Shown in pieces: positions 15,298-17,564 of a stretch of DNA of 37,995 bases; position 1 is the stretch's first letter, and every line of letters begins with the position of its first letter. The notes beneath the pieces are model-generated. The model made no database searches. It was not told where the DNA came from and saw nothing but the letters and a program-made list of their open reading frames with translations. The position numbers and the translations under genes are program-made. The stretch lies in assembly GCA_947624705.1 (NCBI GenBank), contig CANQLL010000006.1:1-37995 (forward strand), written 5' to 3'. The DNA is from an uncultured Bacilli bacterium. Its GTDB lineage: Bacteria > Bacillota_I > Bacilli_A > RF39 > UBA660.

Positions 15298-17130
15298 TTA
15301 AATTTTTTGGTAAGTTTTAGAACAATACAATTTTGCTTGTGCTAGCTCTAAATCATATTCTTTTAATATTTTTTTATCATCAGAATTGATATAACTATCT
15401 ACAAACCCATCTTCAAAAACTCTAATAAACCAATTTAAAGTACAAACGGTATATACTTCACGTTTTTTGGCTATTTCATTGTAATAACATATTGTTTCTT
15501 CTTTTGAAACTTTTTTAAATTTAGCATAACGCAAAGAAATTAAAATATTTTCAATTTCTCTATATTCCGTACTATTTCGAGAAGTAAATTCATTTCTACG
15601 ATATATTTTATTATTATTTTCAAAATAAAATTTACTTGGTACAAATAATTTTATATCATTTAAAGTTTTTCCAGTTTTTAAATCTAATAAACCTTGATAA
15701 TTATCTATCCCATTATAATATTGATGATTATTATCAATAAGAGGGTTAATTATAAAAGGTAAAATATCGTGATTATATGTTGTAGTATTGCAATTTGATA
15801 AACCAATAATACTAGCCACTATTTCATCCTCTTCTTTATTCATTTCATCCATTATAAATTTAATAGCTGCTTTTGTACTATTATACAATTTTTCCCTATC
15901 AAAATGATTAGCTATCCAATTACTTAGCTTTATTCCTTGGGCAATTAAAACATTGCCATTACGCATTAATAATACCATACCAAAATCTTTATTTTCATCT
16001 GTTGAAATAGATAGAATACGCATGTGGGGATTAGTTAGAAAATTATTAAATAACATAAAAGCTTCACCATTTATTCGAAAGCAATTCCCTGCTTTATAAC
16101 CCATAACTAAATTTCTAATATCATCTAAAGGTAGCAGTTCAAAAGTAAAATTTTCTATTTTAGGAATATCAACTTTCATGATAGAAGTTTTATTTTTTAA
16201 TTTTAATTTTGAATAAACAATCATATTTTTATTAATAATTTCTTGTTCACTTTCAGTAATTCCGTATTTATGACAATATAAAGAAATCATATCTTGTAAA
16301 ACAACACCAGATAAATCTGGATTAGTTAATTTTGGAGAAAGATATCTTTCTTTTAAAAGAATTCTAACTTTAGATTGATTAAGTTTATTACCTAATTGTT
16401 CTATAAAGTAATTTAAATTATTATAAAAATAATCAAAGTTTAGAAATAAATCTATAAAAAATCCTTCTATCATTAATCTCATATTATTATTTAAATCTTT
16501 TTTATTACTAAATAAAAACTTATTAAAAATAGCAATATTTTGATTATTAATGTTTTTAACATTTAAATTATTAAATAAATAATGAATTATTTCATAATCA
16601 ATTAAACCATAATTTCCCCTTAAAACTTCAATAGCATTATCTGTTCCGATGGTTAAATACATCTTTATGGCTATTTTCAAAAATTCTTCTTCTGTATTAA
16701 AACTAGTTTTTCGAAGTAACCATTCAGGTTTATTAACAATTGATTTTTTTAAATCTAATTCATCATTTTTTAAATCTATTTTTTTAATATATTCTACTAT
16801 AAATCTAATTTGTTTGGTTGGTAGCTTAAAATAATCAATAGGATTAATAAGTTCTTCAATATTGTTTAGTTTTTCGTTATCATATTTTAAATAGGCAATT
16901 AAATCATAAATATTATTATTTAATAAAACTTTAAATATGTCCTTAAATTTATTACTATGAATACAATGTAGAAACATTTTATAAAATTCATCAGGGAAAG
17001 AATCTATCTTATAATAATTATCTAAAAATAATTTAACTGAAGTAAAGTCATTAGTTGGTATATTTGATAATAATTTATATAATTTTAAAGCTTTAAATAA
17101 GTTTAATTTATTTTTACTTTGTATTTCCAT
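15298..17130 (-). CDS. Hypothetical protein (610 aa)
   Basis: Long ORF; contains LVMGYKAGNCFRINGEAFMLFNNFLTNPHMRILSI; no confident family. Confidence 0.75.
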   Translation of the reverse strand: MEIQSKNKLNLFKALKLYKLLSNIPTNDFTSVKLFLDNYYKIDSFPDEFYKMFLHCIHSNKFKDIFKVLLNNNIYDLIAYLKYDNEKLNNIEELINPIDYFKLPTKQIRFIVEYIKKIDLKNDELDLKKSIVNKPEWLLRKTSFNTEEEFLKIAIKMYLTIGTDNAIEVLRGNYGLIDYEIIHYLFNNLNVKNINNQNIAIFNKFLFSNKKDLNNNMRLMIEGFFIDLFLNFDYFYNNLNYFIEQLGNKLNQSKVRILLKERYLSPKLTNPDLSGVVLQDMISLYCHKYGITESEQEIINKNMIVYSKLKLKNKTSIMKVDIPKIENFTFELLPLDDIRNLVMGYKAGNCFRINGEAFMLFNNFLTNPHMRILSISTDENKDFGMVLLMRNGNVLIAQGIKLSNWIANHFDREKLYNSTKAAIKFIMDEMNKEEDEIVASIIGLSNCNTTTYNHDILPFIINPLIDNNHQYYNGIDNYQGLLDLKTGKTLNDIKLFVPSKFYFENNNKIYRRNEFTSRNSTEYREIENILISLRYAKFKKVSKEETICYYNEIAKKREVYTVCTLNWFIRVFEDGFVDSYINSDDKKILKEYDLELAQAKLYCSKTYQKI

Positions 17131-17240: not shown

Positions 17241-17269
17241 TTGATTAAAAGTCAAATTTATGATATATT
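17241..17269 (+). promoter_or_regulatory. Sigma-A-type promoter for the antisense RNA
   Basis: TTGATT (17241-17246), 17-nt spacer, TATATT (17264-17269). Confidence 0.6.
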
Positions 17270-17275
17270 GAATAT

Positions 17276-17388
17276 GCAAGAGAAACTTGCATAAAATAAA
17301 AAAGGAACAAATTAGCAATCGCTTGTTAGTTGTTGCCAGAAATTGTTTTGAATCATCTAATTCATTGCTGAGTTAGATGATTTTTTTA
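17276..17388 (+). ncRNA. Candidate antisense RNA antitoxin of a type I toxin-antitoxin locus
   Basis: Starts after the promoter at 17241-17269; ends in AATCATCTAA-loop-TTAGATGATTTTTTT (17351-17387); antisense to the 3'UTR of the 17391-17471 ORF. Confidence 0.55.
17351..17387 (+). terminator. Rho-independent terminator of the antisense RNA
   Basis: AATCATCTAA ttcattgctgag TTAGATGATT followed by a T-run. Confidence 0.75.
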
Positions 17389-17390
17389 TT

Positions 17391-17471
17391 TTATGTTAAT
17401 TTTATTATGATTATAATTAATAAAAAAATTATAATTAACAAACAAAAATTCAGAAAATCTTTCTTTGTCAT
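17391..17471 (-). CDS. Candidate type I toxin, 26-aa hydrophobic peptide
   Basis: RBS GAGGTGA upstream of ATG; MTKKDFLNFCLLIIIFLLIIIIIKLT*. Confidence 0.6.
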   Translation of the reverse strand: MTKKDFLNFCLLIIIFLLIIIIIKLT

Positions 17472-17535
17472 TATATCACCTCACTCCCTATGAAGAAGTT
17501 TGGCAACATCTAACTGCTAATTTATTCCCACATTT

Positions 17536-17564
17536 AGTATATCGAACATTTGTTATTATTTCAA
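17536..17564 (-). promoter_or_regulatory. Sigma-A-type promoter of the toxin mRNA
   Basis: Minus strand TTGAAA (17564-17559), 17-nt spacer, TATACT (17541-17536). Confidence 0.65.

What the first reader, a model, noticed from the sequence alone, without database searches (positions are those of the whole stretch)
17309..17523. Inverted repeat brackets the small-toxin ORF: predicted 5'-3' mRNA lock
Plus AAATTAGCA-atcgctt-GTTAGTTGTTGCCA (17309-17338) matches minus AAATTAGCAGTTAGATGTTGCCA (17523-17501), 22 of 23 nt with a 7-nt bulge. The toxin mRNA 3' end can therefore pair with its own 5'UTR just upstream of the RBS, a long-distance interaction known from hok and other type I toxins. The antisense RNA carries the same sequence as the 5'UTR arm, so it could compete for the 3' arm.
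Basis: partly seen in the sequence, partly recalled or inferred. Interest (0 to 1): 0.66.

Follow-up and report, generated by a model that had tools for sequence, protein, structure and literature searches.

The report
Toxin mRNA locked end to end
A tiny membrane-peptide toxin gene, present in many copies in a family of uncultured gut bacteria, makes a messenger RNA whose first bases have co-evolved to pair with its last bases, beside a counter-RNA that shares one of the pairing arms, and about half of the toxin promoters carry a DNA-damage (LexA) switch; it looks like an undescribed self-silencing toxin family.

Summary
The inverted repeat is real and longer than described (17304-17338 / 17501-17528). 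At this one locus it is only modestly better than chance, because the window is AT-rich. Relatives settle it. The same genome holds about 17 related loci, and 126 toxin-bearing relatives were parsed, nearly all from one family of gut Bacilli. Unprompted consensus folding of 33 diverse toxin mRNAs finds a 24-pair helix joining 5' end to 3' end, 23 pairs with compensatory changes. The direction of wobble differences shows that the toxin-strand RNA is the one that pairs. The helix starts at the predicted +1; its 3' arm is the hairpin of the mRNA's own terminator, and the 7-nt "bulge" is that hairpin's loop. The claimed consequence is not shown: predicted Shine-Dalgarno accessibility is the same with or without the 3' arm. 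New here: toxins match no Pfam, NCBIfam or PHROGs family; about half of the toxin promoters carry a LexA-type box also found upstream of recA and lexA; the antitoxin's terminator arm also co-varies with the mRNA 5' arm. Best reading: a new, lineage-specific, partly SOS-controlled type I toxin-antitoxin family with an end-to-end mRNA lock.

The parts
17391..17471 (-). toxin ORF, 26 aa MTKKDFLNFCLLIIIFLLIIIIIKLT, one hydrophobic segment
   Evidence: homologous ORFs in 126 loci vary least at codon position 2
17477..17488 (-). Shine-Dalgarno region GGGAGTGAGGTG
17536..17564 (-). toxin promoter TTGAAA-17-TATACT
17544..17554 (.). LexA/DinR-type box GAACATTTGTT in the spacer of the toxin promoter
   Evidence: same kind of box upstream of recA and lexA
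17501..17529 (-). mRNA 5' end and 5' arm of the lock (x); predicted +1 about 17529
   Evidence: x starts 6-8 nt after the -10 in 113 of 126 loci
17304..17338 (-). mRNA 3' arm of the lock, also the hairpin of the mRNA's own intrinsic terminator (loop 17318-17324)
17293..17303 (-). U-tract of the toxin mRNA terminator (TTTTTTATTTT)
   Evidence: 6 or more T in the first 8 nt in all 126 loci
17241..17269 (+). antitoxin promoter TTGATT-17-TATATT with TG before the -10
17276..17387 (+). antitoxin RNA (predicted), antisense to the toxin mRNA 3' UTR
17276..17290 (+). antitoxin 5' hairpin GCAAGAGAAACTTGC, overlapping the invariant block TTGCATAAAATA
17304..17338 (+). antitoxin hairpin y, same sequence as the mRNA 5' arm
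   Evidence: mean fold energy -10.9 against -4.6 for shuffles over 126 loci
17350..17387 (+). antitoxin intrinsic terminator; its arm CATCTAA (17354-17360) can pair with TTAGATG of the mRNA 5' arm (minus 17513-17507)

Best explanation
This is a type I toxin-antitoxin locus of an undescribed family. A LexA-type box sits in the toxin promoter. The roughly 240-nt toxin mRNA runs convergently into and through the antitoxin gene and ends at its own intrinsic terminator. After termination that hairpin opens and pairs with the mRNA 5' end from about +1, closing the message into an end-to-end panhandle. The likely role (inferred) is a dormant, nuclease-resistant message with no free 5' end for ribosome standby, its 3' arm hidden from the antitoxin. 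The constitutive antitoxin, perfectly antisense to the 3' UTR and carrying a copy of the 5' arm, displaces the lock or pairs with the nascent 3' UTR and sends the mRNA to degradation; its terminator arm can also pair with the freed 5' arm. Shown by sequence comparison: the architecture, the co-evolution of the 5'-3' helix, its strand specificity, the two terminators and the LexA-type box. Inferred: expression, toxicity, translation block, antitoxin action, SOS induction.
For: RNAalifold on 33 diverse mRNAs finds the 5'-3' helix unprompted, 24 pairs, 23 with double changes. 90.9% of cells pair; 153 double-change cells against 53 +/- 7 in shuffles and at most 34 when slid. Cognate lock duplexes are stronger than within-family non-cognate ones, -31.9 against -28.4 kcal/mol, z = -11. 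Differences follow wobble on the toxin strand: x=U/y=C plus x=G/y=A 237, the reverse 53. 107 of 126 full-length minimum-energy folds pair at least 60% of the 5' arm with the 3' arm. The U-tract follows the 3' arm in all 126. AAC-N4-GTT lies in 65 of 126 toxin promoters and in 0 of 126 antitoxin promoters, and a box of this kind lies upstream of recA, lexA, a Y-family polymerase and a TIGR03916 repair protein in the same genome.
Against: No transcript, toxicity or probing data exist here. Predicted Shine-Dalgarno accessibility does not change on 3' truncation. Homologous loci are not independent, so shuffle counts are not probabilities. L008/L014 carries arms that do not match well (score 18). 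About half of the toxin promoters lack the LexA-type core. The window's box is imperfect at one end (GAACATTTGTTA).
Confidence: 0.74

Rival explanations
1. Fst/par-like reading: the x-y similarity serves antitoxin-mRNA pairing in trans through the self-complementary arms, not an intramolecular lock.
For: The y arm is a hairpin, and the antitoxin terminator arm co-varies with the mRNA 5' arm (x:t1, z = -7.8).
Against: Trans x:y pairing shows no cognate preference (z = +0.8). The x arm is a poor hairpin, -4.3 against -3.4 shuffled, with little pair support. The x:t1 signal is matched by x:rc(t2) within the mRNA (z = -7.8), so it does not by itself prove a trans contact.
Confidence: 0.15
2. Repeat homogenisation: x and y are inverted copies kept alike by gene conversion or recent duplication, without an RNA role.
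For: Paralogues are multicopy in the genome, and some antitoxin-only copies exist.
Against: Differences are strongly wobble-biased in one direction; y most often exceeds x by 5-8 nt, the terminator loop; double changes are spread over 23 of 24 pairs.
Confidence: 0.06
3. Chance complementarity in AT-rich DNA.
For: 7 of 1500 random window places score as high.
Against: The helix recurs with compensatory changes in diverse homologues.
Confidence: 0.01
4. The arms are mainly a stabilising device (both ends of the mRNA sealed) and do not regulate translation.
For: Shine-Dalgarno accessibility is unchanged on truncation, and local Shine-Dalgarno hairpins are found in subfamilies A, B and D.
Against: Nothing here excludes it; it shares the 5'-3' helix with the best explanation and differs only in consequence.
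Confidence: 0.3

Closest known systems
AapA/IsoA of Helicobacter pylori (PMC6733600)
   Same: multicopy chromosomal type I system, small toxic peptide, full-length mRNA held in a 5'-3' long-distance interaction, additional hairpins masking the Shine-Dalgarno
   Different: Different phylum. In aapA3 the 3' part masks the Shine-Dalgarno itself; here the paired 5' arm is the extreme 5' end and predicted Shine-Dalgarno accessibility does not depend on the 3' arm. Here the antitoxin overlaps the mRNA 3' UTR and carries a copy of the 5' arm.
hok/Sok (own knowledge; PMC6733600 for the comparison with AapA)
   Same: 5'-3' fold-back of a toxin mRNA that needs 3' processing
   Different: Toxins do not reach the family cut-off (one weak HokA hit, E 0.12); antitoxin geometry differs (own knowledge).
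Fst/par of pAD1 (PMC7472228)
   Same: convergent promoters, small toxin mRNA, structured leader, repeats that provide pairing
   Different: par uses direct repeats and one bidirectional terminator; here the arms are inverted repeats and each RNA has its own terminator.
BsrG/SR4 (PMC8309996) and TxpA/RatA (own knowledge) of Bacillus subtilis
   Same: antitoxin overlaps the 3' end of the toxin mRNA
   Different: No match of the peptides to any family model at cut-off; LexA-type box in about half of the loci; co-varying end-to-end helix.
TisB/IstR-1 and DinQ/AgrB of Escherichia coli (PMC8309996)
   Same: LexA-linked type I membrane peptides
   Different: Trans-acting antitoxins encoded away from the toxin; a different lineage; here only part of the family has the box.

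Membership tests
type I toxin-antitoxin system | small hydrophobic peptide ORF with ribosome-binding site | tested here: met
type I toxin-antitoxin system | antisense RNA gene overlapping the toxin transcript | tested here: met
   predicted from promoter, terminator and conservation only; no transcript data
type I toxin-antitoxin system | peptide toxic, RNA neutralises it at the mRNA level | not testable with these tools
[quoted passage not shown]
long-distance-interaction type I mRNAs (hok, AapA) | 3' processing opens the lock and frees the Shine-Dalgarno | tested here: inconclusive
   in silico truncation frees the 5' arm (0.139 to 0.370 unpaired) but not the Shine-Dalgarno
Hok or Fst toxin family | sequence match to a family model at cut-off | tested here: not met
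   HokA model E 0.12, 12.4 bits against a cut-off of 89; no Fst model among the hits
Fst/par | direct repeats and a shared bidirectional terminator | tested here: not met
   inverted repeat; T-rich tail only on the plus side of t in nearly all loci
Rfam RNA families | covariance-model match at gathering score | tested here: not met
LexA/SOS-controlled toxins | LexA box in the toxin promoter, as at recA and lexA | tested here: met
   in 65 of 126 loci by the AAC-N4-GTT core, window included; binding not tested

The most novel reading that the evidence does not exclude
The antitoxin works as a mimic of the mRNA's own 5' end: by carrying the 5' arm it invades the end-to-end helix at the 3' arm while its terminator arm captures the released 5' arm. 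Each locus would then be a three-way strand-exchange switch, private to its subfamily, in a large set of partly SOS-induced toxins sharing one small genome.
Probability: 0.3. Interest if true: 0.8.

Novelty: new variant of a known kind. Interest (0 to 1): 0.64.

Why it matters
It would add a lineage-wide type I toxin-antitoxin family, its antitoxin block present in about half of the sampled genomes of one gut Bacilli family and more than ten toxin-bearing loci in this 1.28-Mb assembly, in organisms for which no such system turned up in the papers searched. It gives dozens of natural variants of an end-to-end mRNA lock, so the open question of what 5'-3' pairing does in toxin mRNAs (silencing, stability or antitoxin avoidance) becomes directly testable, and it suggests a link between DNA damage and such toxins in part of the family.

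Tried and rejected
Rfam at gathering and relaxed thresholds gave nothing credible. Pfam, NCBIfam and PHROGs gave only sub-cut-off hits of the kind hydrophobic stretches give. Plasmids: no match to the locus. Viral contigs: six exact matches to the 5' block, none with the toxin architecture by eye. The Fst-like trans x:y reading was tested and showed no signal. A stable x hairpin was tested and is weak. Shine-Dalgarno masking by the lock was tested and not seen. All were redone or replaced.

Full report
Observation. The repeat continues 5 nt outward to 17304 and 17528 (pair I11). Taken alone it is modest: shuffles reach the score rarely, but 7 of 1500 random places in this AT-rich window do as well.

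Anatomy. On the minus strand a 26-codon ORF (17471-17391) encodes a peptide with one hydrophobic segment, behind a Shine-Dalgarno region and a promoter at 17564-17536. On the plus strand a promoter at 17241-17269 precedes a short RNA ending at a terminator at 17350-17387. The toxin transcript has no T-rich tail after the minus side of that hairpin. It can end after the complement of 17304-17338, followed by TTTTTTATTTT; all 126 parsed relatives have 6 or more T in the first 8 nt there.

Family. The same genome (1.28 Mb, 87.8% complete) returned 18 matches to the locus; reading them gives about 12 loci with a toxin-like ORF, one more cut by a contig end (L012), and at least four antitoxin-only copies (L011, L013, L023, the second copy in L009). 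A DNA search finds matches in 38 of 60 relatives, some weak. The antitoxin 5' block matches exactly in 136 of 288 genomes drawn from the order (those listed are all of the window's family) against 16 of 296 drawn from the class, of which only G469 is outside the family; the backwards control pattern found none. Named carriers are uncultured gut Bacilli, including Candidatus Ventrenecus. I parsed 126 loci with a toxin ORF into five subfamilies. The ORFs vary least at codon position 2. The peptides reach no Pfam, NCBIfam or PHROGs cut-off, and Rfam has no match.

Is the 5'-3' pairing real? Five tests. (1) RNAalifold on 33 diverse full-length mRNAs, given no structure, returns a helix of 24 pairs between columns 3-32 and 245-276, 23 with double changes. 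(2) Counting on that alignment: 90.9% of cells pair, 153 double-change cells against 53 +/- 7 shuffled and at most 34 when slid; the structure came from this alignment, so the slide control leans in its favour. (3) Cognate arms pair better than arms swapped within a subfamily (-31.9 against -28.4 kcal/mol, z = -11), mostly in subfamilies C, D and E; trans pairing x:y shows nothing (z = +0.8). (4) Differences between x and y are mostly those that leave a G-U pair in the toxin-strand RNA (237) rather than the reverse (53); counted by distinct sequence context the ratio is 89 to 42; subfamily A is the exception. (5) 107 of 126 minimum-energy folds pair at least 60% of the 5' arm with the 3' arm. 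The 5' arm starts 6-8 nt after the -10 in 113 of 126 loci, so the helix begins at about +1.

What does it do? The models do not show that the lock hides the Shine-Dalgarno: mean unpaired probability is 0.246 full length and 0.239 after removing the 3' arm, while the 5' arm opens from 0.139 to 0.370. A consensus leader hairpin near the Shine-Dalgarno appears in subfamilies A, B and D and not in C or E. I therefore favour a lock that seals both ends (stability, no free 5' end for ribosome standby, 3' arm hidden from the antitoxin) over direct masking; this is inference.

Its terminator arm t1 also co-varies with the mRNA 5' arm (z = -7.8), but so does the equivalent stretch inside the mRNA (z = -7.8), so the partner is not resolved.

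Control of transcription. The toxin promoter holds GAACATTTGTT (17544-17554), the only GAAC-N4-GTT on the plus strand of the window. AAC-N4-GTT occurs in 65 of 126 toxin promoters and in none of 126 antitoxin promoters. In the same genome the box lies upstream of recA and lexA, of a Y-family polymerase and of a TIGR03916 repair protein. The pattern RAACAWNTGTTY also occurs at several places with no SOS gene evident, so it is not specific by itself. Most of the 61 promoters without the box carry a different element, near TGTTCGCTTGTTT with up to two mismatches, at the -35, unexplained.

Relation to known systems. It works most like the AapA and hok messages, which pair 5' to 3' (PMC6733600), with a 3'-overlapping antitoxin as in BsrG/SR4 and LexA control as in TisB (PMC8309996). 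It is not filed under any of these: no sequence family is met, and the par features of direct repeats and a bidirectional terminator (PMC7472228) are not met. Papers searched gave no description of this family in the results listed; only passages found by term were read.

Limits. Everything is from sequence. Homologues are related, so shuffle counts are not probabilities. Many genomes are draft assemblies from metagenomes. The locus L008/L014 has arms of two different subfamilies and may be a chimera or an assembly artefact.

Noticed in passing
toxin promoters, e.g. L020, L021, L022: Promoters without the LexA-type box mostly carry TGTTCGCTTGTTT-like sequence at the -35; exact copies in this genome occur only at three toxin loci.
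   Followed up: partly
L011, L013, L023, L009 second copy: Antitoxin-only copies without a toxin ORF, which might buffer paralogues or be remnants.
   Followed up: no
L014 (G000:C49): Antitoxin arm y is of one subfamily while toxin and mRNA 5' arm are of another; the same y occurs at L015.
   Followed up: no
L249, L254: LexA-type boxes upstream of a TIGR03916 radical SAM repair protein and a Y-family polymerase, suggesting an SOS regulon in this small genome.
   Followed up: partly
L233 about 4145: A viral contig with a similar 5' block (AAAGAAATTTGCATAAAATAAAAAGAAG) followed by a strong unrelated hairpin.
   Followed up: no
window 15298-17130 (minus): 610-aa ORF beside the locus with no NCBIfam match at E 0.001.
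   Followed up: no
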